The position numbers and the translations under genes were made by a program. A stretch of 25,062 nucleotides of DNA from a virus. The stretch spans positions 1 through 25,062 of IMG/VR virus record IMGVR_UViG_3300025112_000174; one strand, 5' to 3'. The notes below the pieces were generated by a model. The model ran no database searches. It was given only the letters and a program-made list of their open reading frames with translations, and was not told the DNA's origin. Positions 675 to 19,600 of this stretch are shown in pieces. How positions within the stretch are numbered: the stretch's first letter is position 1; each line of letters starts with the position of its first letter.

Positions 675-2273
675 TTATTTGAGAAGCCAGTCAAACTCTT
701 CTGGAAGGGTTTCCATTCTTTGTTGTGATGCATACACGTCGGATGGTATCGGAACAAGAGGGTTAAGATTGTTGATATGACGAACCGGGCGCTGTTGTTC
801 TTTGTGGCGGCCATTGACAGCAAAGCCACCAAGCATTGCGCGTGATATATCAACGTCTCTTGTTGATCCCCAACCACCAGCAGAAATCAATGAATTGCCA
901 ATAGCCAGGGCCATCAACACATCATCGTGCTTTCCCTTTTTTGCTTTGGCTTTTTTTCCCTTCATTACGAATGTTTTCAATTCTTCGACTACTCGGGATG
1001 ACCGAACTCGAAGAGTATTGTTTCGGAGTCGCTCTTCAAGAACGCGAAGCATCGGGCCACGGGTTGCCACGCTGGTAGTGATACCAATCTTGCTTAGGCT
1101 TCCACCAGGGTCACTCCCATAAAGCATATCGAACTTAGCTTTGACGGTTTTGAAATAGAGGTTTTTATAGCCAAGCTCCACCAACTTGAGGATGGTCCCC
1201 TGTCCGTAAGTGTTGTTCTCTGGGCAGACCTCTGCATCATTGAATCTTTTTCCAACCTCTGCCAACAAAATTCCAAATTGGTCTGGCCGGATCTTGCCCT
1301 TGAATTCGCAGACCTGTTCACATGTATTTTTGTTCAACACTTGAAAAGCTGAGTAATCGGCAGAGTCTCCTCTAGACACGTCTGCTGAGATGATGAATTC
1401 ATCGTCCGGTTGTGGATATTTCCATTGCCAGATATTTCCACCCGGACCCCACTTCTCAATAGGATTCTCAATTTGCATGCTGAGTTTTTCAATTACATCT
1501 GTTGTAACAAACGTGTCTCCCGATGCAGCGAAGTCGCACATCAACTCCTGTGCAATTTCTGTGGGTGTCATATTCTTCGATTCTTTTCTTAGCCACTCTT
1601 CATCACGTCCAGGATGGACATCCCACAGAAGTTTGATGTAGTTGAAATCATTGGTCTTGTTTTTCGCCCCTTCAACAAGCTCGTGATATCTTCCTCCAAT
1701 ACCGTTTGGAGTGCTAATTACAATAGCTCGGCCGCCCTCAGACAGGCAAGAGTAAAGACCCTTCCACAGATCAGCAAAATTTCGAATGAAAGCTGCTTCG
1801 TCAACAACTAACAAAGAAAGAGCCTCTGATCGTCCAGCGTCTTCTGACGTTGGAATGGCCTTGATTTGAGATCCATTGCTAAATGAAATGTGCTGCTGTG
1901 TCTGCTCCACAATCCCTGGCATCACAAGCCATGGCGGCAAACATCTCATCGCAACTTTTACTTTCTTGATAAAGTTCTTTGCAGTTGAAAGCTTGGTTGC
2001 GATGATTAGAATGTTCTTGTCACGATAGAATATAGCCAACCAAACTGCGTAAATAGCTGTAACTGTAGAAAGACCTAGCTGACGTGCCTTAACAATGATG
2101 TTAAAACGATGTTCAATGAAGGATCGAACGCAGTCATCCTGGAATTCATATGTGGCGAATTTTATGGTTCCACGCTGAGGGTGTTGGATCTTCGCAAACT
2201 TGTTGATAAAGTAAACTGGATCCTTTCCACAGCGAATGATTTCTTTAGCTTGTGCAGGTGTTGGTCCGGCCAT
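675..2273 (-). CDS. terL: Terminase large subunit (ATPase and nuclease)
   Basis: The packaging motor docks on the portal, hydrolyses ATP to pump DNA into the prohead and cuts the concatemer. At 532 aa it is a normal length. The ATPase half shows the phage-type Walker A variant KARQLGLST (residues 62-70), Walker B LLVVDEAAF (154-162, D158/E159) and coupling motif STPNG (187-191). The RNase H-like nuclease half shows the three acidic positions: D298 in SADVSRGD, E352 in CPENNTYGQ, and D450/D451 in GKHDDVLMA. All catalytic positions look intact and there is no intein or intron. The ATG at 2273 follows SD TTAGGAT; the upstream gene stops only 4 bases earlier, so the two are probably translationally coupled. 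No small terminase was recognised. Confidence 0.96.
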   Translation of the reverse strand: MAGPTPAQAKEIIRCGKDPVYFINKFAKIQHPQRGTIKFATYEFQDDCVRSFIEHRFNIIVKARQLGLSTVTAIYAVWLAIFYRDKNILIIATKLSTAKNFIKKVKVAMRCLPPWLVMPGIVEQTQQHISFSNGSQIKAIPTSEDAGRSEALSLLVVDEAAFIRNFADLWKGLYSCLSEGGRAIVISTPNGIGGRYHELVEGAKNKTNDFNYIKLLWDVHPGRDEEWLRKESKNMTPTEIAQELMCDFAASGDTFVTTDVIEKLSMQIENPIEKWGPGGNIWQWKYPQPDDEFIISADVSRGDSADYSAFQVLNKNTCEQVCEFKGKIRPDQFGILLAEVGKRFNDAEVCPENNTYGQGTILKLVELGYKNLYFKTVKAKFDMLYGSDPGGSLSKIGITTSVATRGPMLRVLEERLRNNTLRVRSSRVVEELKTFVMKGKKAKAKKGKHDDVLMALAIGNSLISAGGWGSTRDVDISRAMLGGFAVNGRHKEQQRPVRHINNLNPLVPIPSDVYASQQRMETLPEEFDWLLK

Positions 2274-2277
2274 GATG

Positions 2278-2652
2278 TTATCCTAACGGAAGCGGCCAGT
2301 TCATCCGGTAGTAGGCGATCTTTCTCAATGAATTTGATGTTGCCGATATCAGTTCTACGTTATCTGCTCCCTCACCTTTTCCATGTTTGAGGGTGTTTCC
2401 GGTTTCGGCTTTGAATTCCTTCTTGATATCAGCTAGATAGCTATCCAGTCGTTGTCTTGCTTCATCTGCACACCGGACAACCTGGGCTCCTAGTGCAGCC
2501 TCACCTGCGAAGTGTACAATGGTACTGTATTTTAGTGTGAGAATATCACCACCAAGATCACACTTGATTGAATATGTTCCGTCTGGAGAAGATGATTTTC
2601 CAAACGTAGTGTTGATTATGTTGCCCAGGACGTTTACATCGTTGAAATCCAT
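2278..2652 (-). CDS. Small protein of unknown function preceding terminase
   Basis: A 124-aa acidic-to-neutral protein starting MDFNDVNVLGNIINTTFG. The N-terminal half looks like beta strands (YSIKCDLGGDILTLKYSTIVHF), the middle is a charged amphipathic helix (residues about 58-92), and it ends in RKIAYYRMNWPLPLG. I do not recognise a characterised family. Short proteins with a similar 'R+.AYYRR' tail seem familiar from T4-like genomes, but I cannot confirm this. The ATG at 2652 has a good SD (GAGGTAATC). It overlaps the zinc-finger gene by 19 bases and stops 4 bases before terL. Because of position, a packaging or virion role is possible, including a divergent small terminase, but nothing in the sequence proves it. 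Confidence 0.75.
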   Translation of the reverse strand: MDFNDVNVLGNIINTTFGKSSSPDGTYSIKCDLGGDILTLKYSTIVHFAGEAALGAQVVRCADEARQRLDSYLADIKKEFKAETGNTLKHGKGEGADNVELISATSNSLRKIAYYRMNWPLPLG

Positions 2653-2882
2653 TTTTTGATTACCTCACTTCTATCTGGCCGCCAACCTTTTTCCCATCTG
2701 TCGGCGTTGATGTAGTAGTAAGTATCCACACAAAGCGTGCATGCCGCCTTTTTGTGATAAGATTCGAAATCTTTGTTATCCCGAAACAAGTAACCACAAA
2801 CTGGACATTCAAAAACGACGTCACGATCCGGTGCTACGAGTTGATAGCTTCCGGATCGTGACCTGGATTTCTTCTCAATCAT
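2634..2882 (-). CDS. Small zinc-finger protein
   Basis: An 82-aa protein with two CxxC knuckles: C26-P-V-C29 and C48-T-L-C51, with H43 between them. The spacing fits a single treble-clef or zinc-ribbon site. The N-terminus is basic and Ser/Arg-rich (KKSRSRSGS) and the C-terminus is Trp-rich (DRWEKGWRPD). Such phage proteins usually bind nucleic acid or bridge proteins; no specific function can be given. Its ATG overlaps the stop of the methyltransferase gene (ATGA), with no clear SD of its own, so translation probably depends on coupling to that gene. Its 3' end overlaps the next gene by 19 bases. Confidence 0.75.
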   Translation of the reverse strand: MIEKKSRSRSGSYQLVAPDRDVVFECPVCGYLFRDNKDFESYHKKAACTLCVDTYYYINADRWEKGWRPDRSEVIKKWISTM

Positions 2883-3739
2883 TTGGTTAGGATAAACCTA
2901 CAGCCACCGTTCTCAACGTTCGGAGCAGACAAAGCGATTGCACGAGCAACCGGAGAGCCATACATACGACTGATTTCCGTCAAGAAATCTGCTACGGCTG
3001 GATGAAGAGATTTCTTAATTTCATTGGTTCGAATACTTGTTGAGAGTGAGTATCCCCACTTTTTGTCAATGTCGCTGTATCCCATCGCAAGCATTTCCTT
3101 TTCAAACTGCTCTACCGTCCAGAAGAAGATGTGGCCGAGGCCCTTCTCTTTTGTGGTATTGTGGAACTCGCGGGCCTCAGTGTTAATGGGAGATGCAACC
3201 AGAACCTTGCCACCAGGCTTCAGGACTCGCAATGCTTCTTTGAAGAAAATGACATTTGCATCATATGATAGGTGCTCAATCACTTCATTCAGGACAACAA
3301 TAGAGATTGAGTTGTCTTTGATGGGAAGTGGCTTTGTCAGATCGGTACACAAAGCTAGCACATCCTTTCGCTTCTTGACGATTGAACTTTCCAGATAGTC
3401 ACGTCGAATATCCACACCAATGATGTTGGGATAGTGATGAAACAGCTTGAAGACGTTGTAAACAGCAAGCTCTGCGCTGCCCATCTCAAGAATCACATCA
3501 TTTTTGGGATCGTCCATGTGCTTGAGGCACTGCTGTACTGTCCAAGTCCTTTCAAAAATGGTGAAGATCTCGTTATAAACATTCCCGGCTGATGTTTGAC
3601 ATTTCGCCACTTTGCTTTTTGCCAATCCGGCATCAAGATATGCGACTCCATCCTTCACTGGAATGTCTGTTGTTGTCAAAACATCCAAAATTTGAGGTGT
3701 TTTGTTCATGATTGTAGTGTCTTGATCGACTTTTGCCAT
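2879..3739 (-). CDS. Class I SAM-dependent methyltransferase
   Basis: A 286-aa protein with a Rossmann methyltransferase core. Motif I is VILEMGSAE (82-90), followed by the acidic ribose-binding residue in GVD110, an acidic post-II position at D133, the motif IV-like NEVIEH (151-156) and the signature RVLKPGGKVLVASP (171-184). This is a Methyltransf_11-like fold. Motif I is unusual: the glycine-rich loop reads E-M-G-S-A-E, with one clear glycine instead of the usual G-x-G. There is no DPPY or NPPY, so it does not look like an adenine-N6 or cytosine-N4 DNA methylase, and there is no PCQ motif of C5 enzymes. The substrate is unknown. A strong SD (TAGGAGAA) precedes the ATG at 3739; the SbcDC stop is 11 bases upstream. 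Confidence 0.82.
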   Translation of the reverse strand: MAKVDQDTTIMNKTPQILDVLTTTDIPVKDGVAYLDAGLAKSKVAKCQTSAGNVYNEIFTIFERTWTVQQCLKHMDDPKNDVILEMGSAELAVYNVFKLFHHYPNIIGVDIRRDYLESSIVKKRKDVLALCTDLTKPLPIKDNSISIVVLNEVIEHLSYDANVIFFKEALRVLKPGGKVLVASPINTEAREFHNTTKEKGLGHIFFWTVEQFEKEMLAMGYSDIDKKWGYSLSTSIRTNEIKKSLHPAVADFLTEISRMYGSPVARAIALSAPNVENGGCRFILTK

Positions 3740-3750
3740 TACTAATTCTC

Positions 3751-6700
3751 CTATAGAAAGCTAACTTTTGCGTCGTGGCCCGCATTTGTTGAAACTTCAA
3801 TGATGTTATCCACAACATCTTTGACTGTATCCACGTGTGAAATGATTATGATCGATCGAAATGTTTTTGTTAGACTTCGAAGCAATGCCGTGCACGCCTC
3901 AATGTTGGTTGCATCCAGCGCCCCAAACCCTTCGTCGATGATTAGGGTGTCGCACTTCGGAAGACTAGAGACTCGGACCAAAGCTGTCCGAATAGCCAGC
4001 GAAGACATCATCTTTTCCATTCCGCTGCAACACTCGATAACTCGTCTTGAGTCCCCGTAGTTGAGAATAATGTCCATGCCGGATGAATCGTCGGTAGTAA
4101 GTTCAACTGTAAATCCGGTGACACCCTGCAAGATGTTGGCAATTTCATTGTTGATGAGGGGAAGCTTCCGCTTAATAATCTGCAGTGGTATCCCATCTCG
4201 ACTCAAAGCTCGAACCAGCAGGGATAACACGTAGACCCGCTGGTTGTTCTTTTGAAACCCATCCTTGTCTTTTTTAAGTTGTCCAATGTCAGCGACCAAA
4301 AGCCCAATTCTCTCACTCAGCGTTTGGACTCTTCTTTTTGCTTCCAGAAACTTTTCCTCTGCTAGTTTTTTCTTCTTGACCAGAACCTCTCTGGACTTGG
4401 CATTCTCTGTTGAGCAAAGGTTGATCTTCATTCTGGTCAATTGTTCCTTTTCTGCCTCAAGATTTCTTTCGACTGTTGATATTAATGATTGTATCCTTAA
4501 GATCGACATATTACACTTCGAAATTGCCTGAAGCAACACGTATCGTTTTTCGTCATATGTCTGCTTTTGTTCGAGCTTCTCATCAATGTTCTCTTTCATT
4601 AACTTCTTGAGGGACGATCTCATTGCCGCGGCGTGTTTCTTTGACTGGCGCAATTCTTCTTTCTTGTCCAGCATGTTCCTCTCAGCTTTCTTGGCGCTAA
4701 TAATGTACTTGCAGGATGGAAAAGTGTCATCGCATGGAACATCAGTTAGCTTTTTGACTTCCCTCTTGTCTCGCCTAAGCTCTGACGACTTGGTTTCAAT
4801 CTCGCCTGTCAGGACCAACAGGCTGTGTTCAAACTCGGTAATTTTGTCCTTGGATTCTCGGATATCATCAAAGTCAATATCCTCAATCTCTTTCTCCATT
4901 TCCGATGCTGTCGATAACAAGGCTTCCTTTTGAAGCGTCTCGGTCTTTTTCGATTCTTCTAGGTCTTCCAAATCCAGCACCTGCTGGTTTACCTTCTCCT
5001 CTTGATCATCAATTTCGATTTGGGTATAAGCTTCATCTGATTGGGATCCTAGCGCCAAGTTGATGGTATTGAGAATGGCAGTGATTTTTTCCATCGCGAG
5101 TGCCTCTGCATCTCTCTCACTCTTTCTGGCAGTTAGCTTAGACCTACGATCAAGAATCTGAATATCGAATTGCTTTTCCGGAATGGCTGCCAGTGATTTC
5201 TTGGCAAATGAAAGCTCTTGTTTGACTTGATCATGAAGCGCATCCAAAATGTCCAACCTCAAAAACTTGGCAAGGATGTTCTTTCGTGTTGCCGACCCGT
5301 GTGATACGAATCGGTTTATGTCGCCCTGGGATGCCAACGAAGTTAGTAGAAAATCATCCAGGCTCCCAACCATGGTCCTCAGAAGCTTTTCTGTCTCCCT
5401 TCTTTGCTCCTCTGACATATCTCGAAGGACTGTTCCTGTCTCATCACATTCGAATAGATTCAATTGAGTTGATGCTGTTGTGGTGCCACTCCTGTTTGTT
5501 CTCTTGACTGTTTGTCGTTCCACCAGGAAGTTTTTTCCTTGTTTCGATATCACGGCCTTGCTTTTACAGTATCCCTTTCTCGCATTGACGATGTGAATGT
5601 TTTTCATCGGCCCACGATCAGTTCCGTTGAAAAGTGTGTAAGTTAGTGCCCCGCACAGGGATGATTTTCCAGATCGGTTCTTTCCAAAGATTCCAGTAAT
5701 TCCCGATGCCGACTCAAAGTTGACGATATTGTCCTCACCATACCCAAAGACATTATCAAATTCCATCTTCTTGATTGACCAGCGCCCGTTTGAGACGTTG
5801 TCAGTCAACCTAGCTGAACTCCATGTGGATGCCAGGATTTTCGACATTTCGTCATGAACCTGCTGCTTGAGATTCGACTTCGAGTAGTATTCACTGACAA
5901 GGGAGTTGACTGACTCATAGCTGTCGATTTGAGTTACCTCGTCTAAGGAGTCCCCGGAAATCTCAACTGACGATTCGTTTAGTTCACGCTTGAAGACAAT
6001 CTCAATGGGATCTGACACATTTTTGATTGCGCCCCTGATTTGAGTCATCTCTCCTTGTGTAACATTACTTTGAATCCGGACTCTCACATGGGATTGCACT
6101 TTCTGTTCTTCCATGACAGACTGCAGATTATCCACGTTTCCGTCATAGTCCAGCGTCACAAATGGGTGATCATGATCCACCTCGACGTGTTTTGCTTTGA
6201 ACTTCTTGCCGTCGATCTCCCAAAGCAGGAATCCTTTTCCTGTATCCTCTGAGTGATTTTGTTGTGGGAGGCTTCCCGGATAAGCAATCGTTGGGGTCAA
6301 AAACTGTTGCTTGTGAATATCACCCAGCATTGTGTAGTCATAGTCCTGGAAAAAATCCAGCCCAACAATGCAGTCAATTGCCCAGCTCTCATCTGTCTTT
6401 GTTCCTAGGACTGGGCCATGAAGCGTGGCAATGTTTATCTTACCGTCTTCCGGTTTCACATTCGGCCAGGCGGCCTCATCAAAACAAGAAAAAACACAGA
6501 GATTGTGCTGCTCGTCCAAGGGATAAACACCTGACTTCTTGTGAAGCATGATTCTTGGATTGTCGATGGCATGTATGATCGGAGAAATGGCGTCCTCTCG
6601 ATCTGGATTCAGAATCAAGCCATCATGATTTCCCAGTATCACTCGAACTTCTGCTATCTTGGCCAGGCCGTTGAACCACCACGTAAGATGATTGATCAGC

Positions 6701-6870
6701 TCTGGAGAGATCCCCTGTGTCTTGGAGTGGACTATGTCGCCCGCCACCAGAATAAAATCCGGGTTGATCTTCCGGAGCTTTTTGAAAGCGTCCTCAAACA
6801 CAAATCGATATTCTTTGTGTCTGGACAGAGACCTCCAGTGAATATCGGCCATGTGACATATTTTGATCAT
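3751..6870 (-). CDS. SbcD-SbcC (gp47-gp46/Mre11-Rad50-like) single-chain fusion
   Basis: A 1039-aa protein combining the recombination nuclease and its SMC-like ATPase in one chain. Residues 1-340 are a calcineurin-type phosphoesterase: D9-x-H11, AGD45, GNHD (80-83), H151 and GDIH (183-186). Residues 365-460 are the Rad50 N-lobe with Walker A GKNRSGKSS (396-404). A coiled coil follows, with a hook-like C713...C720, and then the C-lobe: ABC signature CSGMEK (948-953), Walker B TLIIDE (975-980), D-loop GALD (983-986) and H-loop SH1012. The complex resects DNA ends for recombination-dependent replication. An ATG 58 codons further upstream is open, but the start at 6870 is preferred: it begins the conserved MIKICHMADIHW block and overlaps the primase stop as ATGA. 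Confidence 0.93.
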   Translation of the reverse strand: MIKICHMADIHWRSLSRHKEYRFVFEDAFKKLRKINPDFILVAGDIVHSKTQGISPELINHLTWWFNGLAKIAEVRVILGNHDGLILNPDREDAISPIIHAIDNPRIMLHKKSGVYPLDEQHNLCVFSCFDEAAWPNVKPEDGKINIATLHGPVLGTKTDESWAIDCIVGLDFFQDYDYTMLGDIHKQQFLTPTIAYPGSLPQQNHSEDTGKGFLLWEIDGKKFKAKHVEVDHDHPFVTLDYDGNVDNLQSVMEEQKVQSHVRVRIQSNVTQGEMTQIRGAIKNVSDPIEIVFKRELNESSVEISGDSLDEVTQIDSYESVNSLVSEYYSKSNLKQQVHDEMSKILASTWSSARLTDNVSNGRWSIKKMEFDNVFGYGEDNIVNFESASGITGIFGKNRSGKSSLCGALTYTLFNGTDRGPMKNIHIVNARKGYCKSKAVISKQGKNFLVERQTVKRTNRSGTTTASTQLNLFECDETGTVLRDMSEEQRRETEKLLRTMVGSLDDFLLTSLASQGDINRFVSHGSATRKNILAKFLRLDILDALHDQVKQELSFAKKSLAAIPEKQFDIQILDRRSKLTARKSERDAEALAMEKITAILNTINLALGSQSDEAYTQIEIDDQEEKVNQQVLDLEDLEESKKTETLQKEALLSTASEMEKEIEDIDFDDIRESKDKITEFEHSLLVLTGEIETKSSELRRDKREVKKLTDVPCDDTFPSCKYIISAKKAERNMLDKKEELRQSKKHAAAMRSSLKKLMKENIDEKLEQKQTYDEKRYVLLQAISKCNMSILRIQSLISTVERNLEAEKEQLTRMKINLCSTENAKSREVLVKKKKLAEEKFLEAKRRVQTLSERIGLLVADIGQLKKDKDGFQKNNQRVYVLSLLVRALSRDGIPLQIIKRKLPLINNEIANILQGVTGFTVELTTDDSSGMDIILNYGDSRRVIECCSGMEKMMSSLAIRTALVRVSSLPKCDTLIIDEGFGALDATNIEACTALLRSLTKTFRSIIIISHVDTVKDVVDNIIEVSTNAGHDAKVSFL

Positions 6871-7823
6871 AGTATTGACCCGCTTTTGATGCCAGCAATC
6901 TTGTGATTGATCAGTGAAATCTTGGACCACTGCTTTGTTTGAGACAGAATATCGCGTACCTCTTGCTTTGATCTGCTTCCGAGATCGCTGCCATTGACAG
7001 ATAAGTTGTAGACATCGCACCCAGCCAGATGCAGACGATGGCAAACCTTGTGTGCTTTCAGCTCAGCACCAGAATCAAAGGCTACAATGACAGTACACCT
7101 ATTTTGTTTCAGTTGCTTGTACAGCTTGCAAGATGCCGGAAGAGAAGATCCCAAAACCGGAATAGTATTGTCAGGACACTTGACGGCATCAAAAACACCC
7201 TCAACCAGAATGATAGGCTTATCCCAGTCAATATCAATCTCATTGAAGATAACATTCCTTTTGGGAATCCTGGCATTTTTGTACTTGAATTTCGTCTCAT
7301 CAATGAATCGAGCTGTGTAGAAGTTGAATTCGCCTTCGGTATCAAATGATGGAAAAATGGCCGTGCGACGGAATCGATACTTGTTGGAAACACAAACTCG
7401 CCAGCGATACAGATCCATTCTGGACAATCCGCGGCTTTGAAGGTAAGTTAAAACATCTCTTGCATCTGGATCTTGACTGGCCTGTGCTAGCAGGACTAGA
7501 TCATCCGGTAGGTCAGGAGTCTGAATCTGCTCTTCAACCTGCACGGTCTGTATGCTATTGTTTTCCGGAAAAAGCTGGCGGCAGGCCTCAGTTCTGTTTG
7601 GAGCAAACTTGCGAAACAAGAAGTTGAGATTTTTCCCAGACAGTCCGCAGACCCAGCAGTGAAACCATCCGTCTGCTAACTGAATGTAGAGCTTCTTCTT
7701 GGATGTTCGTTTGTCCTTGCACTTTGGACAACACATAAGAAAATTAATGCCGTCGATATTAAGACAACCGCTTCCAAATGCACTTTCTAGTAGCTGTATT
7801 TTCTTAGATCTTTCTTGTATCAC
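6867..7823 (-). CDS. DNA primase, DnaG/gp61-like (zinc finger plus Toprim)
   Basis: A 318-aa protein that would make RNA primers for lagging-strand synthesis. The N-terminus holds a CHC2-like zinc site, C32-P-K-C35 and C56-W-V-C59, with the typical GWFHCWVCG between strands. The Toprim region has ILVEGVFDA (205-213, catalytic E208) and TVIVAFDSGAE (244-254, D250), followed by D280 in GSDLGS. The second acid of the usual D-x-D is a glycine (G252), so metal binding may be altered. No helicase domain is fused. The start is GTG, sharing one base with the TAG stop of the RuvC-like gene; no good SD is visible, so translation probably depends on coupling. The stop overlaps the SbcDC start (ATGA). 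Confidence 0.88.
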   Translation of the reverse strand: MIQERSKKIQLLESAFGSGCLNIDGINFLMCCPKCKDKRTSKKKLYIQLADGWFHCWVCGLSGKNLNFLFRKFAPNRTEACRQLFPENNSIQTVQVEEQIQTPDLPDDLVLLAQASQDPDARDVLTYLQSRGLSRMDLYRWRVCVSNKYRFRRTAIFPSFDTEGEFNFYTARFIDETKFKYKNARIPKRNVIFNEIDIDWDKPIILVEGVFDAVKCPDNTIPVLGSSLPASCKLYKQLKQNRCTVIVAFDSGAELKAHKVCHRLHLAGCDVYNLSVNGSDLGSRSKQEVRDILSQTKQWSKISLINHKIAGIKSGSIL

Positions 7824-8413
7824 TAAACAACTATATCATCCAGATCATCGATTTTCAAAACATCAGCACCCCAGACTGCCACCACAAATGCATCGGCAAT
7901 ATCGTAGCAAATTTCCTTGCGACGGGTTTTACCCTTGTCGGGCCCACCCTTGAGGACTTTTGTTGGCCACTGATACATCTCCATCTCTGGACGGGCCATG
8001 GCCCATTGCAATACCTGCTCTTTGGTTCCCACAGTCGACTTTCTGTCAATTGCGCACCCGACAGACTTCCGAGCCGACACTGAATTGACCAACGTGAGAG
8101 GGCACCTCAGCTCGGATCGAGCAATATAGCTGGCAATTCCATTGAATCGATTCAGTAAAGCAATCGTACCAGCCGAAGACATCCTACTTCGGAATGACTG
8201 TAAGGGCTCTTCAACGACGATGACATTGATGATGTGGTCCTGGGAGATCCTCTGTATGTGGTCCCTAAATTCACAGGACTTGGTGTAGAGGCCTCGAACC
8301 TTAGAGAGGGGTAGTCCATAGGCCTCACAAACCCGGTTCATCTGGGATTGTTCTGTGTCAATTACACATAGACCAATATTGGATGTTGATACGTCGATTC
8401 CAAGTATTTTCAT
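7823..8413 (-). CDS. RuvC-like Holliday junction resolvase (RNase H fold)
   Basis: A 196-aa protein beginning MKILGIDVSTSNIGL. Acidic residues are placed as in RuvC-type resolvases: D7 at the first strand, E68/E69 in VIVVEEPLQSF, and D171/D174 in CYDIADAFVVA. Such enzymes debranch recombination intermediates, allowing replicated DNA to be packaged, and many phages carry one in place of endonuclease VII. An open frame continues to 8464, but that start would overlap the upstream LamG gene by 41 bases and adds an unconserved 17-residue tail. The ATG at 8413 starts directly at the first beta strand and lies 10 bases after the previous stop. The SD is weak. Family assignment rests on motif pattern and context. 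Confidence 0.85.
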   Translation of the reverse strand: MKILGIDVSTSNIGLCVIDTEQSQMNRVCEAYGLPLSKVRGLYTKSCEFRDHIQRISQDHIINVIVVEEPLQSFRSRMSSAGTIALLNRFNGIASYIARSELRCPLTLVNSVSARKSVGCAIDRKSTVGTKEQVLQWAMARPEMEMYQWPTKVLKGGPDKGKTRRKEICYDIADAFVVAVWGADVLKIDDLDDIVV

Positions 8414-8423
8414 TGTTTCGCGA

Positions 8424-10919
8424 TTAGAAGTCGCATCTGACCCGGATCGTGTAGCGATCCCCATCTCTTTTCACAACCGGCTGCGCAAAGTTGGCTCGAG
8501 CCACTACGTTCATGTTCCCATCATGTAACTGCATGCCTGTTAAGTAAACAAACGAGCCGGCCGTTTCGCTAGGATAATCACTGGGGATCATGTCCCGATA
8601 TGATGAGTTGGATGATGAGTTGATGTAGCCTTTGTTGACCGGAACGTTTACCTCAAGAACATGAATGTTTCTCTGGCCTTCAAATGAAATCTCCCAGGCA
8701 TCGGCGCCGAAGAGTGGAAGATTAGGCGACTTCACCACCACAATCCCTTCCTCGTAAATGACATTTCCCACTGATGCCCATGTAGCATGAGCACTGAGAC
8801 TGTCAGCTCGATACAGATTTCCGTATCCGTCATCCTTGAGAGTTATCTGGACCCTCCCGTTGGTTCCGGTGACGGCCATGTCTTTTAGAACAACAGACTT
8901 CGGCTTGATCATGTCTCCGTAGAACATATTGGATATGTCAAAAAAAACCACTTCGTTGGATGTTGGATCTTTGGTTCGTTGCAAAATGGTCAAAATATTG
9001 CCGGGCGAGACTCCTGGATCTTCCGGGGTCGAGCCAATCACAGGTGCCAGAATCGAGCCGGTTCCCAAAGTGGTGGTGTCATTTGGGGCATCAAATGCAG
9101 GAAGAGATGCTGTGCTAACCATGTCCCTCAGAGTTATCATTGACAGGTCGATGTTTCCAAAATCATTTCGATACCTGTCGAGGAGAGATCCACTGGCTGC
9201 AGTCGTTTGGTTTCCTGACAGAAGTAGCTGGAAGTTTGGGAAGAACCTTCCGTTGTCGTTGGGAAGTACTGTCACATTTCGTTTTCGATTACTGCCTGAC
9301 TCATAAATCCAGTAGTTGGCCGTCCGGGCGATACTGGTCGTCTCATCAATTCGAGCAGCCTCGAGTCCAACATGTCGTGGATAGAAGCCTCGAACAAACT
9401 CACGAGTAAAGTTCTCCAAATTGAGTTCATGTCCGGCGATGCCAAACGACATAGCTACATTGAACGGGTCTTCAGTTGACCCAGTAGCGTAAAAGAAAGG
9501 CGTCTGATTGATCCAACGAGTTGGCGTGTTCTTGACAAAGAACGGCGGCACATAAAACAGAAGACCGTCGTTAGCAGAAGTTCCGGATAGTTGAGGCTCT
9601 GAGCCTGTCACACCGGCCTGCACGTAGTAAGGATTCAGAGAGAATCCCTCCTTCGACGACGTTAGAATCTGTTGCAGTGTTCGATAGTTGTCAAAGATTT
9701 TGAGATCGTGGACCTCGGCATTCAGTGGGTGATTGAACTGTGCATCTGCTGGATCAGCCGCGTTGGAGTCGCCATTGAAATCGAGAACACCAAACTCTGT
9801 GTGTGCATCCGGGCTGAAATACCCAGCAATTGGCTTGGTGTCCCGGTTAGTTCCCTCAAAAAAGTTTCCAATGAAAAGGGCGTCGGCATCATGAATCTCT
9901 GGTGTGGTCGAAATTGGTGCCATGACTGACGAACTGGTGATAAGGAAGCTACCTTGCTCTTCTCCATCAATAACAAATGACCCAGAACCGTGTTGAATGT
10001 CTGGATCCCACCTGATTGCAATATGATGCCAGGTGTTGAAATCTAAGCTGTTGTCGTTTGAAACGAAAAGGAATCCTGTGTCGGCCGATGATGCAGGAGC
10101 TGTCACAGTATTTCCAGAGACTAGAACAGTGCTCGGAGATATCTCAGCAGACTGACTTAGTTGCAGAAGAAGTCTAAACCCATTAGGCTTCGACGAAACT
10201 GAAGAAACCGACGTGCCAGTCACCAAGCTGATTGCGTAAGACGACGACATGTGAAACACAGTTCCGGCTGTGAACTCATCACCCACGTTTTCAATTGTGT
10301 ATCGAGGATTGATGTAGAAGTCAAACGTGAAAGCATCGTCCGGAGCATAAAAGTTCGTGTCTTGCAACGCCACAGTTCCTGTGCCGGCTGGATAAATGAT
10401 CGCCGTGTCCGATGCAAGAAATGATCCAGTGGCAAAGTTGAGGCTGTGATAATTGCTGTAAGCCCATTGCGACGATGGATACGCATTCCGGTAGTAGGGA
10501 AACAGAACATCCTTGACAACGCTCTTTCGTAGAAAATTGGGATTGATCTTGACACTTGGCTCGAACCTGATTACGTTCTGCTTCTTGGCAAACTTTGTGG
10601 ATGATGTTATGTCATGAACACCTGATACATAAGCCCACACCTGATTGTATGCATTTGATTCTGACACGACAGAGTCGACTGCTGCCGCACGGACAGATTC
10701 TATGCTGTGGGCGACCTGGGAAGTTGATGCATACAGGCCAATGTCGGTGTACACATCTTTCAGCGTGGCAGAACCATCGGCAAAAAGCGACAAAGCACCG
10801 GTAATTCCCGGAGGAGTCACATGAGAAACATTGGTTGATGCTGACTTGTACGTTCGCTGTGGGTTTGCCAGTAGCGTGTATCTTTCTATGTTATCCGAAG
10901 TGATCCTTGTGATCGACAT
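8424..10919 (-). CDS. Virion protein with LamG/concanavalin-like domain
   Basis: An 831-aa protein, probably a tail, neck or fibre component. Residues about 195-415 form a LamG-like jelly roll: FTFDFYINPRYTIENVG, FNTWHHIAIRWDPD (about 294-307), SGSFVIDGEEQGSF, and closing strand HDLKIFDNYR. Such domains commonly bind glycans. The last 113 residues (719-831), ending DRYTIRVRCDF, resemble the C-terminus of the 425-aa protein encoded at 12158-13435. The frame is open from a TTG at 10925, but the ATG at 10919 is the better start (MSITRITSDN). No strong SD is present. It is followed 10 bases later by the RuvC-like gene, so a structural gene leads into the recombination block. The exact virion location is unknown. 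Confidence 0.82.
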   Translation of the reverse strand: MSITRITSDNIERYTLLANPQRTYKSASTNVSHVTPPGITGALSLFADGSATLKDVYTDIGLYASTSQVAHSIESVRAAAVDSVVSESNAYNQVWAYVSGVHDITSSTKFAKKQNVIRFEPSVKINPNFLRKSVVKDVLFPYYRNAYPSSQWAYSNYHSLNFATGSFLASDTAIIYPAGTGTVALQDTNFYAPDDAFTFDFYINPRYTIENVGDEFTAGTVFHMSSSYAISLVTGTSVSSVSSKPNGFRLLLQLSQSAEISPSTVLVSGNTVTAPASSADTGFLFVSNDNSLDFNTWHHIAIRWDPDIQHGSGSFVIDGEEQGSFLITSSSVMAPISTTPEIHDADALFIGNFFEGTNRDTKPIAGYFSPDAHTEFGVLDFNGDSNAADPADAQFNHPLNAEVHDLKIFDNYRTLQQILTSSKEGFSLNPYYVQAGVTGSEPQLSGTSANDGLLFYVPPFFVKNTPTRWINQTPFFYATGSTEDPFNVAMSFGIAGHELNLENFTREFVRGFYPRHVGLEAARIDETTSIARTANYWIYESGSNRKRNVTVLPNDNGRFFPNFQLLLSGNQTTAASGSLLDRYRNDFGNIDLSMITLRDMVSTASLPAFDAPNDTTTLGTGSILAPVIGSTPEDPGVSPGNILTILQRTKDPTSNEVVFFDISNMFYGDMIKPKSVVLKDMAVTGTNGRVQITLKDDGYGNLYRADSLSAHATWASVGNVIYEEGIVVVKSPNLPLFGADAWEISFEGQRNIHVLEVNVPVNKGYINSSSNSSYRDMIPSDYPSETAGSFVYLTGMQLHDGNMNVVARANFAQPVVKRDGDRYTIRVRCDF

Positions 10920-11000: not shown

Positions 11001-11483
11001 CTATGTCAGTAGTTTGATTGCTTCCACAACATTCGCGTCAGACAAACCAGTATCAAAACTGGTTTGGACAAAGTGATCCGTCAAATGCTCCATATCATCG
11101 TCATCATCTAGAATCACAAATCGCTCGCAATTGGGAGCGTTTTCATCGAGCCACGCCTGGATTTCAATGCCGCGCGGGGTATGAAGGATCGGAGTCATGC
11201 CGACAAATTCTCCATGAACGTTCGCCAGCTTGTTGAAAAATGTTGCGGCGGCCTCTGTACTGTCGAAATGCATCCGCCATGTTGATGACAGGACAATCTT
11301 GGCGTCAACAGATGAAGTTAATCGATTCAGGCGTGCAATACAGTTTTTGTCAAGCATCTTAGCTTCACGTTCCCAGAAGCTTCCTGTGAGCAGCGGGCAG
11401 AAATTCTCATCAAAGAAATCCGCAGAGTTCAAAACACCATCAACGTCCAGAAAAACCAAGCAATCATTTTCATTCAGTGTCAT
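11001..11483 (-). CDS. HAD-superfamily phosphatase-like protein (RNA-repair-associated type)
   Basis: A 160-aa protein with the HAD motifs: FLDVDGVLN (11-19; nucleophile D13, acid D15), LSSTWR (65-70, motif II with following Arg) and VILDDDDDM (123-131, motif IV acids). The segment PRGIEIQAWL fits the small HAD family found in 'Swiss Army Knife' RNA repair proteins. The likely reaction is hydrolysis of a phosphate ester; a nucleic-acid 3' end or nucleotide substrate is inference from family resemblance. There is no fused kinase or ligase. A strong SD (AGAGGAA) lies 5 bases before the ATG and is inside the 53-aa upstream ORF, whose end overlaps this start by 14 bases. It is the last gene of the promoter-bearing cassette. 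Confidence 0.85.
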   Translation of the reverse strand: MTLNENDCLVFLDVDGVLNSADFFDENFCPLLTGSFWEREAKMLDKNCIARLNRLTSSVDAKIVLSSTWRMHFDSTEAAATFFNKLANVHGEFVGMTPILHTPRGIEIQAWLDENAPNCERFVILDDDDDMEHLTDHFVQTSFDTGLSDANVVEAIKLLT

Positions 11484-11631: not shown

Positions 11632-11691
11632 TCAACCCATTCGGATCACCTCAGCTTCAGTTGCCCTCTCATCAAACTTACGAATCCTCAT
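11632..11691 (-). CDS. Possible 19-aa ORF linking two genes
   Basis: The frame reads MRIRKFDERATEAEVIRMG followed by TGA. The ATG overlaps the last codons of the DUF7448-type gene in another frame. An AGAGG sequence lies 6 bases upstream of this ATG, a good SD distance, and its TGA abuts the ATG of the 53-aa ORF. It could be a real micro-peptide or only a translational relay. It is too short for composition to support it. Confidence 0.22.
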   Translation of the reverse strand: MRIRKFDERATEAEVIRMG

Positions 11692-12091
11692 TGTCATCCT
11701 CTTTCTTCAGTCGATACAAGTCGACAGACTCGCTGTAATATCCGTTGGACTCACCAAGCCATCGGACGGTGACGTAACCCTTATTGGTTGCGAACTTGAA
11801 GAATGTCCAAGTCCAGCTCTCAGACCACCTATCAGGCCTATCAGTATCCTGTGACGCTGACTCATCTGCCTGTAACAGAGGGGAACCCACCAAGTCTTCG
11901 AGATCACCGGTGATGTCCTCGATTTTGACGGACTCACAGCAGTCTTGGTCATGAACGAAAACGTAGACCTCACCCTCAACTGTGATGAAAGTCAGTTCAT
12001 CTCCGTCTTCACCTTGTAATTGCTTGACAGACTTCATCGTCTTGCCAACAAGTTCGGAAATCTCAACTCGATCGTGAGCGTAGTAGTGCAT
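11678..12091 (-). CDS. DUF7448-type protein
   Basis: A 137-aa acidic protein. I recognise the conserved run VHDQDCCESV (46-55) followed by IEDITGDLEDLVGSPLL, and later WTFFKFATNKGYVTVRW and ESNGYYSESVDLY. This combination is typical of the DUF7448 family, found in phages and bacteria with unknown function. The conserved HDQDCCE cluster could be a metal or catalytic site, but that is inference. SD GGGAG precedes the ATG at 12091, and an extended -10 promoter lies about 34 bases upstream, making it the first gene of a separately transcribed cassette. The C-terminus is very acidic (KKEDDNEDS). Confidence 0.85.
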   Translation of the reverse strand: MHYYAHDRVEISELVGKTMKSVKQLQGEDGDELTFITVEGEVYVFVHDQDCCESVKIEDITGDLEDLVGSPLLQADESASQDTDRPDRWSESWTWTFFKFATNKGYVTVRWLGESNGYYSESVDLYRLKKEDDNEDS

Positions 12092-13448: not shown

Positions 13449-14165
13449 TTATGAACTGCTGCTATTCTTGTTGATATTGACCATGAATTCTTTGCGAAGG
13501 CCTGACTGATCTCCAACCACTGCAACGACCGTGCTAATAGTGTCTCCGTTTCCATAAACATTGAACGATGTATCGTCTATTGCCCGTGTTTCCAGAGTGA
13601 ATTGCATCTGGGCTCCATTCTGACTTGTTGGTGTGGACCTAACAATGTTGTAGCTTGCAATGCGACTGGTCGGCTCGACCTGCAACGGGGTATGATCCCG
13701 GATTGTCAAGAAACGATCCGGCACAAACACAGTAAACATCACATCTCCTGTTCCGTCCGGAATTCGAGTCTGTGCATCAATTTTCTGGACAACCCTGACG
13801 TCTGACGTTGTTGTCGGATCAAGAGTGATTGTGTTGTTGGTGACTCCCAGGATTGACATCGAGGGAAGCCTGATAACTGTTGGATCCGGCAAGGTCAGCA
13901 GACGATATTTGAGAGCCAGAGCTCCCTGAGTCTGTGCTTCAAAGATTGGTGTGTTCTTTGTGATCTTCTCTTTTCCAACGGTGCGTCCAAACTTCTCGAT
14001 GATTGTGTAATCGACCTCATCATCGCCAAGCGAGAAAAACGCCAGCTTGAAACTTCCGTTGTTGTCCGCCAACTTGCGGCGACCGACGTCAGTTAGTACC
14101 GCGTCGATGATAATGTTGTTTGTAGAATTGTCAAGAAATCCGATATCACACCTCCAGTGGTGCAT
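13449..14165 (-). CDS. Virion structural protein with possible ATC start
   Basis: A 238-aa protein if it starts at the ATG at 14165, or 231 aa if it starts at ATC 14144-14142. Conserved sequence begins at GFLDNSTNNIIIDAVLTD, and then comes LGDDEVDYTIIEKFGRTVG. Relatives I remember begin with Met where this one has Ile (ATC). The seven residues before it (MHHWRCD) are read from the tail of the homing endonuclease gene. A strong SD, GGAGG, lies 6 bases before the ATC, whereas the ATG at 14165 has only a weak AAGTGG upstream. The N-terminal module resembles that of the 318-aa protein at 23380-24336. It is probably a tail or neck component; the start remains open. Confidence 0.8.
   Translation of the reverse strand: MHHWRCDIGFLDNSTNNIIIDAVLTDVGRRKLADNNGSFKLAFFSLGDDEVDYTIIEKFGRTVGKEKITKNTPIFEAQTQGALALKYRLLTLPDPTVIRLPSMSILGVTNNTITLDPTTTSDVRVVQKIDAQTRIPDGTGDVMFTVFVPDRFLTIRDHTPLQVEPTSRIASYNIVRSTPTSQNGAQMQFTLETRAIDDTSFNVYGNGDTISTVVAVVGDQSGLRKEFMVNINKNSSSS
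14143..14152. repeat. Direct repeat copy 1, at 3' end of homing endonuclease
   Basis: On the minus strand it reads GGTGTGATAT. It matches GATGTGATAT at 14861-14870 at 9 of 10 bases (8 contiguous). The two copies flank the homing endonuclease gene and may mark the insertion ends. Confidence 0.4.
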
Positions 14166-14817
14166 AGCGCCACTTGCACTTTTTGTGCGTCTGTCTTAGT
14201 CCTCGACAAACAGACAGTATTTTGCTGTCTGATCCGTTGACCAATGATTTTGCTGCCAATTGGGCTGATTCGAACCTTCGAATCTCATTCCCTTCCAGGT
14301 CAAGCTGGATTACTGGCGTCGTCTTGTATTTTCTTCGTCTGTTTGCTGCCGCGATCTTTGCTCGTGCCTCAGCCGACTGAGGTGTCCCGAACGGCCGGCC
14401 ACCGTTTCCGGGCAAGTCTGCTGCTAACAATCCCTTTGAAATCGCCTTGCAGTGAGCCGGTGATAGCTTCTTTCCCATCCGAGCTCGACTCATTGCCGCT
14501 TTGGCTTCATCAGTATGACGATATCCGAAGATTCCGTCTCCGCCAAGGGTCATATTGTATCCCCCTTGCTTCACAAAAGTCTCCAGCTTCTCAATCCAAA
14601 ATGTCTCTCTCTTTCGGAGGGATACTTCAGAGTCGCACTTCTCTATCGTTTTCATTTTGAAAGTGTCGGTGCCGTATTTTCTGATTGCTTTTGCCAGAAG
14701 CGTCTTCGCAGATTTTGAAGCATGAACGTGATATCTCCAGCGCTCAGAAAGAGGCTTGGTTGTGATTCCCACATACCCTTTTCCGTTCTGCGTGTTTTCT
14801 ATCAAGTAAACTTTCAT
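14146..14817 (-). CDS. GIY-YIG homing endonuclease (free-standing, Seg-like)
   Basis: A 223-aa site-specific DNA endonuclease that spreads its own gene. The catalytic domain is N-terminal: VYLIENTQNGKGYVG (3-17, GIY and YIG strands), R26, the helix FWIEKL with E76, and YNMTLGGDG (87-95, with N88). A NUMOD3-like DNA-binding segment (GYRHTDEAKAAMSRARMGKK, 98-117) follows. A NUMOD1-like helix-turn-helix (VIQLDLEGNEIRRFESAQLA, about 168-187) runs into a WRYA ending typical of these enzymes. All catalytic positions appear present, so it may be active. It sits between two virion genes in the same orientation, not inside a clear intron. The SD is weak (AAGAGAAA). Its end overlaps the next gene's upstream start and contains that gene's strong SD. 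Confidence 0.9.
   Translation of the reverse strand: MKVYLIENTQNGKGYVGITTKPLSERWRYHVHASKSAKTLLAKAIRKYGTDTFKMKTIEKCDSEVSLRKRETFWIEKLETFVKQGGYNMTLGGDGIFGYRHTDEAKAAMSRARMGKKLSPAHCKAISKGLLAADLPGNGGRPFGTPQSAEARAKIAAANRRRKYKTTPVIQLDLEGNEIRRFESAQLAAKSLVNGSDSKILSVCRGLRQTHKKCKWRYAPLEV
14149..14155 (-). promoter_or_regulatory. Strong ribosome binding site before a non-canonical start
   Basis: GGAGGTG on the minus strand is the best SD in this area. It overlaps the last codons and stop of the homing endonuclease gene. At ideal distance (6 bases after GGAGG) the codon in the frame of the downstream structural protein is ATC, not ATG/GTG/TTG. A GTG directly after the SD is too close and leads to an 18-codon dead-end frame. 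Confidence 0.6.
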
Positions 14818-16699: not shown

Positions 16700-19600
16700 C
16701 TAAACCACCGGTGATGCCGAATTGACTTCGGCTGAGTATGTCATGATAGAAACAGTTCCCTGGGTTGTGCTCGTAGCTACCCTGGCCATGTCCTTCGCCT
16801 TGCCTGTGTTGATCCTTTCCCCACCCTTGATGATCTCAATATTTCCATCGGATGTCTTAACAAACTCTCCAGAATCAAAGAAACAGCCCAGAACTTTATC
16901 GAAGTACACAGGGGAGAAGACCCGCTCTCGAATCAAGCCGTCATAGAAATACGGAGAACTAAATATGTCATAGAATAACTCCGCCGTTCCCAAATCGATA
17001 ACAGCTGGCTCAAAAATCTGGCCCTCTGTCGTCTTTGTAACATGTGAGACAATTGACTTGAGGATCATCGTTTCTGACAAACGGGTAACTCCATCTACAG
17101 TTGAGAATATCCCATCAAACGTTTTCTTCGGCAGACCCGCGACCTCGCTGATCTTTTGTGCCAGATCTTTAGCGCCGGGACTACGTTTTTCGTAATCGAT
17201 TTTGACCAAGTTCTCCTCTGTCATATCAACAGTCGAAAGAAGGGATAATGCTTTTTTCATCAGATGTGATGTCATCTCGTTTTCCAGCACCTGTCGTACA
17301 GCAGCCGGATTTTTGTGCTTATCAGCAAACTCCGCGCCGGTTTGGCCATTCGCTAGCATCATTTTATTCACAATGTCGGTTTTTGAAACCGTTTTCGGTC
17401 CAAATCCAGAAAAGCTGTTTCGATCAAAGAATCTCGTCACGAAGAAATCCTTCGACATCTTTTTGTAAAGAGCGTTGTCAAACACTCCGTCTTGAAAAAT
17501 CGATAGTGACATCACCTCATCTTCGATGTTTGCTTCATGCCCAGAGTCTAGACTAAACTTCAGCTGGCTAGAGATGAAATTACCAGGAAGACCAAATGAG
17601 CAAAAAACAATGTTGTCGGTCTGTTTGGTGCTGGCATCTCTGATTATTGCTTCGATGCAAACTTTTTCTCCCATCGAGAGTTTTTCCAGTCTCTTGCTTG
17701 GCCTCTCCTTTCCTTGCCTGATATCGTTGAGTCGATCTTGGGCAATGTCCAAGCTATAGTCCGTCACAGAATCCAGAAACTCTTTCCCTAGCTGCTCTTG
17801 TGCAAAGCTTCGAAGTGCTTTTGCCAAGTCATCCGGATCTTTATCGCCTCGAAGCATTGCGCCGAGACCGGACAAGATTTTTGTCTGCTGTTTGGTGTAT
17901 GCAATGAGTCCCCTTGCCGAAGCTAACGAAACAAAAGGTGCATCACGCTCTTCGGCAAGGCCAGTAAAGTTGGATTGAAGAGCCCTAAATGATTTTTCAT
18001 GTGGATACAACTGGGCTGTTACGACGGAGTCGATTGATCGATTGTCTAAATCGGGCAGCCTGTTGTTGTCACTAAGTAGCTGGGTGAAATCATTGGCTTT
18101 CGATCCCTGGACCAACAAGCGAGCTGCATGATAACCCGTGAAGTTCTGGGTGTCCGGACCTACCGGTGCCACCACAGAAAACCTGCCCACGAAGTCCTTT
18201 CTGACAGCCGAATCAGTAAACATCGATATCAAGTCTAGCGCGGCTTCAAACAAAATGGAGATCGACAACGTTCCATCAATTTGAGAATTACGTGTTAGTC
18301 GATCTGGACCGAGCCAGGTGGCATCTTCGTTTTCAGTTTTTGAGAAACCTTTTGCTTCCTCGTGCATGCTAATGAAAATCCCAACGATACGGCTGAGAAG
18401 TGATGTGTCAGACTCATAGATTTGCTCAAAGAATGTCGAAGGAAACATCTTGATAATGACTTCGTTAGCCGCCGCGGGAGGAGTCTGCAGCCTGCTTAGG
18501 TCCAAAAGGGCTTTTACAACCTCATTAGGAACGGCGTTTTGCATCTTCTCGCCGATCAAGTTGGAGTCATTTGGAGAAAACCTAACAACGTCATTTGAGA
18601 ATGTTACAACAGCACCAGAATCTGATTCCTTTTGTGACGTCGTGATTGTGTACGTCTTTCCGTCTGTTTCGTCACCCTCTTTGATGTTAACTTCCGTCGT
18701 TGTTGATTGCTGCGATTTTTTTCCGGCGGCTGCGTCCGATTTGAACTGCTGGAAATCTTTTCCACTTAGCTTCAGGGCAGCCTTCTTCGCCATTAAGGAA
18801 AGCAAATAGCGCTTGACAATGTTTGCTGGTGACCACTTGCTGTCAGAACTCTTTCCTGTGCTGGCTATTTCTCTCATGACAGCCAGCTCAACAATGCTCA
18901 ACTTTTTCCCGCTATTTTTTCCTGCCGCCATTTGCGACAAGGAAACCGATACCTCATCAAGGAGGCCTGTGTATAGGCCACGCGGTGTCAACAATACCGG
19001 CTCTTGATCTCTGAGGTGTAGCTTTTTGTAAAACTGAAGTCCTTCGTCCATGGATGTGCCGGCCCGAACTAGTGCGTCATCAAACAAATTCATCTTATTG
19101 GTGAGAGGGGAACGAGTCACAGATGTCATGAACTCATTAAATGAACTGTTGACTTCTGTGTTTTCCTGTGTTGAAATCACATCATTACTATCCAGAAGGA
19201 GTACCCGATTTTTTGCTTGGGTTTGAGCTGATCCGTCCGGTGCAATTACGAGATCGTCAACTAAGCTGTTCGGCTGTGTTGTTTCTTGGGATGCATCCTG
19301 AATTTCTTGTGTTCCCAAAAACGTGTTGATGTAGTTTTGGGAGTTTGACCCAAATCGATTTCCCAAAGGAGTTTCTGCCAGCCTACCCAGACCAGCGGAG
19401 ATTGCGTACTCGTTAGCCAACATCGTAACCAGCGCCAGTGATTTCTTATCAGACGGATCGATCATCTTTCTGTAGAAGTCAAGACTAACATACGCGGTTT
19501 CATTTGCCAGACCGTAGATGTAATTCTGTGCCGGGCTGTTTTTCATCGACAGGGACTTGATGTCAGTTGAATACTGCTTCTTCCCTGTTGCAACTGAGAA

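What the first reader, a model, noticed from the sequence alone, without database searches (positions are those of the whole stretch)
3751..6870. Recombination nuclease and ATPase joined in one polypeptide
In T4 and most bacteria the Mre11-like nuclease (SbcD/gp47) and Rad50-like ATPase (SbcC/gp46) are separate genes. Here one uninterrupted 1039-aa frame carries all nuclease metal motifs in residues 1-190, then Walker A, coiled coil, hook, signature, Walker B and H-loop. Fusion fixes 1:1 stoichiometry and places the nuclease C-terminus directly at the base of the ATPase head, which constrains how the complex can move. The nuclease capping region also looks short.
Basis: partly seen in the sequence, partly recalled or inferred. 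Interest (0 to 1): 0.55.

Follow-up and report, generated by a model that had tools for sequence, protein, structure and literature searches.

The report
Phage fused Mre11-Rad50 (SbcD-SbcC) protein
This uncultured phage makes the two halves of the Mre11-Rad50 DNA-end-cutting machine as one protein chain; the join is real and shared by its close relatives, but fused versions of this machine have been known since 2011.

Summary
Window 3751-6870 (minus strand) is one 1039-codon frame (117.6 kDa): Mre11/SbcD-like nuclease, capping domain, helix-loop-helix, 8-residue linker, then a complete Rad50/SbcC-like ATPase with coiled coil and hook. It is no sequencing error: 112 of 132 and 144 of 157 loci checked carry both halves in one frame; nearly all the rest are cut by contig ends. 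No family member fetched from viral contigs was split at the domain junction. A true artefact of this kind exists elsewhere (Listeria phage LMTA-57, one base shorter than its sister phages) and served as control.

The fusion is not new. Yoshida et al. 2011 described Mre11/Rad50 fusion proteins, one in a phage, and suggested that Mimivirus R555-like sequences abundant in aquatic viromes may come from phages. The window protein has the two active-site substitutions they report for R555. I file it as a new member of that known kind. The junction keeps its length within 3 residues in 194 of 194 full-length proteins. The least expected detail is the hook: CX6C instead of CxxC in about 60% of the family. 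Function (DNA-end processing for recombination or replication) is inferred from homology and gene order only.

The parts
3751..6870 (-). Fused Mre11/SbcD-Rad50/SbcC-like protein, 1039 aa, 117.6 kDa
   Evidence: single frame; Pfam; PHROG_77 SbcC-like 253-1029, 2e-48; mass
6181..6870 (-). Nuclease (metallophosphoesterase) domain, residues 1-230; likely ligand residues D9, H11, D45, N81, H151, D184, H186
   Evidence: Pfam Metallophos; fold match to SbcD; conservation; ligand roles recalled for Mre11
6313..6321 (-). D184-I-H186: Asp in place of the first His of the Mre11 GHxH motif
   Evidence: 194 of 194 full-length fused proteins have D184 and H186; GHxH in 9 of 10 split comparators
5971..6180 (-). 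Capping domain, residues 231-300 (strand-helix-strand-helix-strand)
   Evidence: AF2 model; aligned with SbcD cap
5809..5919 (-). Helix-loop-helix (Rad50-binding region), helices 318-328 and 336-354
   Evidence: AF2 model; matches the E. coli SbcD C-terminal part
5785..5808 (-). Linker between nuclease part and ATPase, residues 355-362 (8 aa)
   Evidence: AF2 secondary structure; residue 336 to W364 spans 27-30 residues in 194 of 194
5659..5685 (-). Walker A (GKNRSGKSS, 396-404)
   Evidence: sequence; K402 194/194
4204..5169 (-). Coiled-coil arms, residues 568-710 and 721-889
   Evidence: AF2 model
4711..4734 (-). Hook at the coiled-coil apex, C713-X6-C720
   Evidence: sequence; apex position; family survey
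4015..4026 (-). ABC signature SGME (949-952)
   Evidence: S and G 194/194, M 166/194, E 193/194
3913..3945 (-). Walker B and D-loop (LIIDEGFGALD, 976-986)
   Evidence: D979 and E980 194/194
6867..7823 (-). Upstream DNA primase-like gene; its stop overlaps the fusion's ATG by 4 bases
   Evidence: PHROG_47 1e-30; synteny; sequence
7823..8464 (-). RuvC-like resolvase gene
   Evidence: PHROG_159 8e-16; synteny
675..2273 (-). Large terminase, downstream end of the conserved block
   Evidence: Terminase_6N 3e-13; synteny

Best explanation
It is a single-chain Mre11-Rad50 (SbcD-SbcC) enzyme of a tailed phage, a phage member of the known Mre11/Rad50 fusion proteins. Most likely two chains dimerise through the ATPase heads, the nuclease and the hook, giving the equivalent of M2R2. 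ATP binding closes the heads on DNA; hydrolysis lets the nuclease reach the DNA end and trim it, giving 3' single strands for strand invasion, recombination-dependent replication and production of concatemers for packaging. The nuclease is tethered to its own head through the helix-loop-helix and an 8-residue linker. Shown here: the single frame, domain order, predicted folds, conserved motifs, constant junction length, gene neighbourhood. Inferred: dimer form, nuclease activity, role.
For: One frame of 1039 codons. Domain hits and fold matches: head 362-1039 to Rad50 3av0_B (Z 31.3, 359 aligned) and E. coli SbcC 7yzo_D (Z 30.2); residues 1-295 to SbcD 7dog_A (Z 25.3). Fusion is the rule among relatives: 112 of 132 loci in the first check; 144 of 157 in the deeper one, 12 cut by an end, 1 with an in-frame stop inside the nuclease domain. 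In 194 distinct full-length proteins (window included) D45, N81, H82, H151, D184, H186, K402, D979 and E980 are 194/194; D9 193, H48 193, E952 193, H1012 192, H11 183. Junction 336 to W364 is 27-30 residues in 194 of 194. Conserved neighbours RuvC - primase - fusion - two small genes - terminase: of 113 locus rows with the fusion (repeat fetches and comparators included), terminase 107, primase 96, RuvC 87. Fused Mre11/Rad50 already described, with the same two substitutions in R555 (PMC3175470).
Against: No experiment. Two active-site positions differ from canonical Mre11 (H48 for D, D184 for H), so activity is not assured; 10 of 194 proteins also have Q at H11. The hook is not CxxC. SMC-type heads (cohesin, condensin) score Z 24-27 in the same list, so the head fold alone is not specific to Rad50. 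AF2 pTM is 0.56, so the placing of the nuclease against the head is unreliable, and no dimer was modelled. The window is a 25 kb fragment, so a second, separate SbcC or SbcD elsewhere in the genome cannot be excluded; one far relative, the 735 kb phage LR756501, has a further SbcC-like stretch. Other named phages with similarity have split genes.
Confidence: 0.8

Rival explanations
1. The fusion is an artefact: a sequencing or assembly error removed a stop codon or frameshift between two genes.
For: Such artefacts exist: Listeria phage LMTA-57 is annotated with a fused 1009-aa exonuclease, but its stretch is 3030 bases against 3031 in the other 28 of 30 records listed (62 matched in all); 23 of those 28 have annotation, and it shows two features, once three. 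The aligned A511 record differs by one base in a homopolymer run just before the nuclease stop.
Against: Contigs from many different metagenomes carry the same single frame: 112 of 132 loci and 144 of 157. Between the window and four near relatives, synonymous positions differ at 44-100% per region and nonsynonymous ones at 9-45%; over residues 330-380 pn/ps is 0.33-0.41. The nine linker codons alone are too few to judge and show no restraint against L005 (ratio 1.0).
Confidence: 0.01
2. One frame but two products: an internal start or protease releases a separate ATPase, so the complex works as a normal two-chain MR.
For: Two in-frame Met lie near the junction, M342 and M369, and M369 has a purine-rich upstream.
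Against: Neither Met is conserved: residue 342 is M in 7 of 87 and residue 369 in 16 of 87 aligned proteins. The linker is short and of constant length with W364 in 194 of 194, unlike a cleavable tether.
Confidence: 0.07
3. The nuclease half is not a working exonuclease: the substitutions make it a structural or regulatory domain, and the protein acts mainly as an SMC-like DNA-binding or defence-related ATPase.
For: GDxxH and GDIH replace two Mre11 motifs; H11 is Q in 10 of 194 proteins. The ATPase tail matches the PADLOC model mad3 (3e-13).
Against: The substituted positions hold residues able to bind metal, and D184 and H186 are invariant, as for an active site. GDLH also occurs in the T5-like Vibrio D146 SbcD homologue, and GDLFH in four Herelleviridae homologues. 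The mad3 match covers residues 673-1030, the SMC-like tail only.
Confidence: 0.12

Closest known systems
Mre11/Rad50 fusion proteins (Mimivirus R555 type; Yoshida, Claverie and Ogata 2011, PMC3175470)
   Same: N-terminal Mre11, C-terminal Rad50 in one chain; capping, HLH and short linker kept; third Asp of the DXH/GDXXD motif replaced by His and the His206 equivalent by Asp, as the paper states for R555; abundant in aquatic viral sequences; the paper lists primases among genes on R555-like scaffolds.
   Different: R555 is 1351 aa against 1039. I did not compare the R555 sequence itself. No CX6C hook is mentioned in the parts read (1-3 of 5).
Microcystis phage Mel-JY01 WWT39521.1 (named phage relative)
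   Same: One 1066-aa frame of the same architecture, primase-like gene upstream with one small gene between; also the nearest terminase among phage records (38.7%).
   Different: About 26% identity overall to the window protein; CxxC hook.
T4 gp47/gp46 and E. coli SbcD/SbcC
   Same: Homologous domains, Walker motifs, coiled coil with apex hook; nuclease gene before ATPase gene; fold match for SbcC/SbcD.
   Different: Separate genes; GHxH and GDxxD motifs and CxxC hook.

Membership tests
[quoted passage not shown]
Mre11/Rad50 fusion proteins (PMC3175470) | Capping and HLH region present with a short linker (paper: 9-12 residues would bridge the gap; most but not all of its fusions have it) | tested here: met
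   predicted HLH 318-354 and 8-residue linker; constant length
Mre11/Rad50 fusion proteins (PMC3175470) | R555-type active-site substitutions (GDxxH; Asp for His206); not a feature of every fusion protein | tested here: met
   H48 and D184, against the paper's text for R555
Mre11/Rad50 fusion proteins (PMC3175470) | Branches with R555 in a tree | not tested
   R555 sequence was not fetched; one search shows only that 28 phage fusions form one side of a branch against 10 split pairs
Canonical Mre11/SbcD | GHxH motif | tested here: not met
   GDIH in this protein; D184 and H186 in 194/194
Canonical Rad50/SbcC | Split ABC head: Walker A, signature, Walker B, H-loop | tested here: met
Canonical Rad50/SbcC | CxxC zinc hook at the coiled-coil apex | tested here: not met
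   CX6C at 713-720 at the predicted apex; 74 of 194 family members keep CxxC
T4-type gp46/gp47 | Two separate genes | tested here: not met
   one frame; T4 genes
Mre11-Rad50 nucleases | Mn-dependent nuclease and ATP-dependent DNA-end processing | not testable with these tools
   needs purified protein

The most novel reading that the evidence does not exclude
The fused family repeatedly swapped its dimerisation hook between the canonical CxxC and a different CX6C loop (PCGDxFPxCK[FY]I) at the coiled-coil apex. If the CX6C loop holds zinc, or dimerises without it, in another geometry, this is a new hook class for Rad50-type proteins. With the nuclease locked to the head by a linker of fixed length, the hook would be the main freely evolving contact of the complex.
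Probability: 0.35. Interest if true: 0.45.

Novelty: new member of a known kind. Interest (0 to 1): 0.3.

Why it matters
Fused MR proteins seem little studied: five paper searches listed one paper devoted to them (open-licence library only). The family here is large and its place near the terminase is conserved. A naturally tethered MR is a ready-made test of whether the nuclease must swing far from its head, a question otherwise addressed with engineered constructs (recalled). The hook variant would test how much the zinc geometry matters.

Tried and rejected
Artefact: rejected by the relatives; the LMTA-57 case shows that the check can detect one.

Internal start for a separate ATPase: the candidate Met are not conserved.

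Intron or RNA element in the window: no Rfam match at gathering level and no tRNA. Locus L027 with its insert also had no Rfam match, so a group I intron is not shown.

Plasmid relatives: only 4 weak matches to the ATPase tail among 72,556 records. Cellular genomes: 16 stretches matched a pattern and 3 encode a relative, all in metagenome-assembled genomes, which may be phage contigs. PADLOC and NCBIfam hits are partial or far below cutoff and were not used for naming. One early DNA search with a 31-base query found nothing and says nothing. The Flavobacterium phage immuto, second nearest by terminase, has no PHROG_77 match, so near terminases do not imply this gene.

Named phages: of the 36 records matched at E 1e-5 I looked at gene arrangement in 10: fused in Mel-JY01 and LR756501, interrupted in LR756508, probable artefact in LMTA-57, split in SBSphiJ5, MTATph1, Vibrio D146, Rhizobium I1_18 and Mater; Bacillus phage G shows an SbcC-like gene and no annotated nuclease beside it, and was left out of the 10 split comparators.

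Biases: scans kept the best 80 of at least 566, 594 and 585 relatives by score over the whole protein, which favours fused copies. The ATPase-only search returned the same 25 contigs as and no split copy, but is seeded with this protein's own peptides. The 132 and 157 loci include repeat fetches of the same contigs; the de-duplicated set is 198 proteins, 194 of at least 1000 residues, window included. In one search the two proteins that fitted neither hook pattern were counted with CX6C. The trees used 27 of the 87 proteins then held plus L027 in pieces, against 10 split pairs; several end branches are long (L029 and most split rows), and for five split ATPases the Walker A pattern was not found, so their N-terminal piece was taken from residue 1. 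VIA-align is a second look at Foldseek's list; absence of a family there means nothing.

Full report
What is there. Window 3751-6870 on the minus strand is one uninterrupted frame of 1039 codons. The ATG overlaps the stop of an upstream primase-like gene by four bases, which suggests translational coupling (inference). Pfam and PHROGs give a metallophosphoesterase N-terminus and an SbcC-like remainder. An AlphaFold2 model from 63 aligned sequences (mean pLDDT 83.7, pTM 0.56) gives, in order: nuclease, beta-alpha capping domain, a helix-loop-helix (318-354), eight linker residues (355-362), the first ATPase strand (363), a coiled coil with its apex at 711-720, and the C-terminal ATPase half. 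Against solved structures the head matches Rad50 and SbcC best (Z 31.3 and 30.2), with other SMC-type heads following at 24-27, and residues 1-295 match SbcD at Z 24-25 (Foldseek). The low pTM means that the relative placing of nuclease and head is not reliable.

Is it an error? Scans of IMG/VR with the protein, with profiles and with the ATPase part alone brought relatives from many metagenomes. In the first check 112 of 132 loci carry nuclease and ATPase in one frame. The other 20 are 16 fetches of 10 contigs cut by a contig end, and L027 (interrupted by an insert), L030 and L031 (Listeria and Bacillus comparators) and L114 (a cut MAG contig). In the deeper check 144 of 157 are fused, 12 are cut by an end and one (L272) has an in-frame stop inside the nuclease domain, not at the domain junction. 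Two named or assembled phages agree: Microcystis phage Mel-JY01 and the 735 kb phage LR756501. Synonymous change near saturation with restrained amino-acid change over residues 330-380 (pn/ps 0.33-0.41) fits one selected chain; the nine linker codons alone are too few to judge.

A useful control. Listeria phage LMTA-57 also carries an annotated fused exonuclease. The same stretch is one base longer in the other 28 of 30 records listed (62 matched); of those 28, 23 are annotated, with two features and once three. In the A511 comparison the missing base lies in a homopolymer run just before the nuclease stop. So that fusion is probably an error, and the method tells the two situations apart. Other named phages with weaker similarity have split genes.

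How conserved is the join? In 194 distinct full-length fused proteins the stretch from residue 336 to W364 is 27-30 residues in all, and W364 is invariant. The 2011 paper estimated that 9-12 residues would bridge the about 28 A between the Mre11 C-terminus and the Rad50 N-terminus in the Thermotoga complex. Eight linker residues fit a nuclease held about where it sits in ordinary MR. This speaks for a natural complex made in one piece, and not clearly for a new way of moving.

Active site and hook. D184 and H186 are present in 194 of 194 and H48 in 193 of 194; H11 is Q in 10. Of ten split comparators nine have GHxH and one (T5-like Vibrio phage D146) has GDLH; four have GDLFH. So each substitution is known outside the fusions. 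The hook is CX6C in 118 of 194 (the pattern allowed six or seven residues between), with two more close to it, and CxxC in 74. None of ten split comparators has CX6C; nine have CxxC and one has neither. On a FastTree of heads and nucleases without the coiled coil, hook type needs five changes, four forced by supported branches. Two paper searches (listings and abstract starts seen, passages read in PMC9569753) showed no report of such a hook. That is weak evidence of novelty, as the library holds open-licence papers only.

Neighbourhood. RuvC, primase, fusion, two small genes and terminase recur together in this order: of 113 locus rows with the fusion (comparators and repeat fetches included), terminase is found in 107, the 124-aa gene in 105, primase in 96 and RuvC in 87; many loci lacking one end at a contig end. 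This supports a role in recombination and replication of DNA destined for packaging, by analogy with T4 gp46/47 (established for T4; inferred here).

Evolution. With 28 fused proteins and 10 split pairs, the fused ones form one side of a branch in both the nuclease (98/99) and the ATPase tree (100/97). Several branches are very long and R555 was not included. The 2011 paper found its thirteen fusions not monophyletic; my sample is phage-only, so the two do not conflict.

What is known. Yoshida, Claverie and Ogata 2011 (PMC3175470; parts 1-3 of 5 read) describe Mre11/Rad50 fusions in Mimivirus, bacteria, plasmids, eukaryotes and Bacillus phage 0305phi8-36. They suggest that some R555-like sequences abundant in viral fractions may originate from phages, note that fusion was confirmed in only a few environmental sequences, and report for R555 the two substitutions seen here. 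A jumbo-phage survey (PMC7824862; 12 of 13 passages) calls SbcC/SbcD practically universal in jumbo phages; the passages shown do not mention a fusion of the two.

Verdict. Real, well conserved and not artefactual; a new member of a known kind. The hook variant is the part that may be worth a bench test.

Noticed in passing
L027:5665-6582 (uncultured phage LR756508): The same fused gene is interrupted just after the GDIH motif by a separate ORF with HNH-endonuclease (PHROG_1271, 4e-15) and TnsA-like (6e-6) matches, a homing-type insert at the active site; no Rfam intron match.
   Followed up: partly
L030:4917-7946 (Listeria phage LMTA-57): Annotated fused recombination exonuclease that is probably a one-base error; the annotated sister phages listed have two genes (once three features).
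   Followed up: yes
window 2278-2652 and 2634-2882: Two small genes between fusion and terminase: the 124-aa one in 105 and the 82-aa one in 75 of 113 locus rows. The 124-aa one has no Pfam or PHROG match; the 82-aa one has only weak zinc-finger-like matches.
   Followed up: no
window 2879-3739: A methyltransferase gene directly after the fusion gene, found at this place only in L002/L032 (one contig) and L020 among 113 locus rows.
   Followed up: no
window 14146-14817: GIY-YIG endonuclease with a NUMOD3 (and a weak NUMOD1) motif, homing type, overlapping the start of the 13449-14165 frame.
   Followed up: no
window 11001-11483 and 11678-12091: Swiss-army-knife HAD phosphatase (RNA-repair type, 5e-32) and a DUF7448 protein (2e-29).
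   Followed up: no
window 16700-20539 and 20552-23371: Very large proteins (1279 and 939 aa) without any Pfam or PHROG match, probably virion proteins.
   Followed up: no
L302 (LR756501, 670999-672753): The 735 kb phage has a second SbcC-like stretch apart from its fused gene (PHROG_77, 4e-74), with stop codons counted within the match.
   Followed up: no
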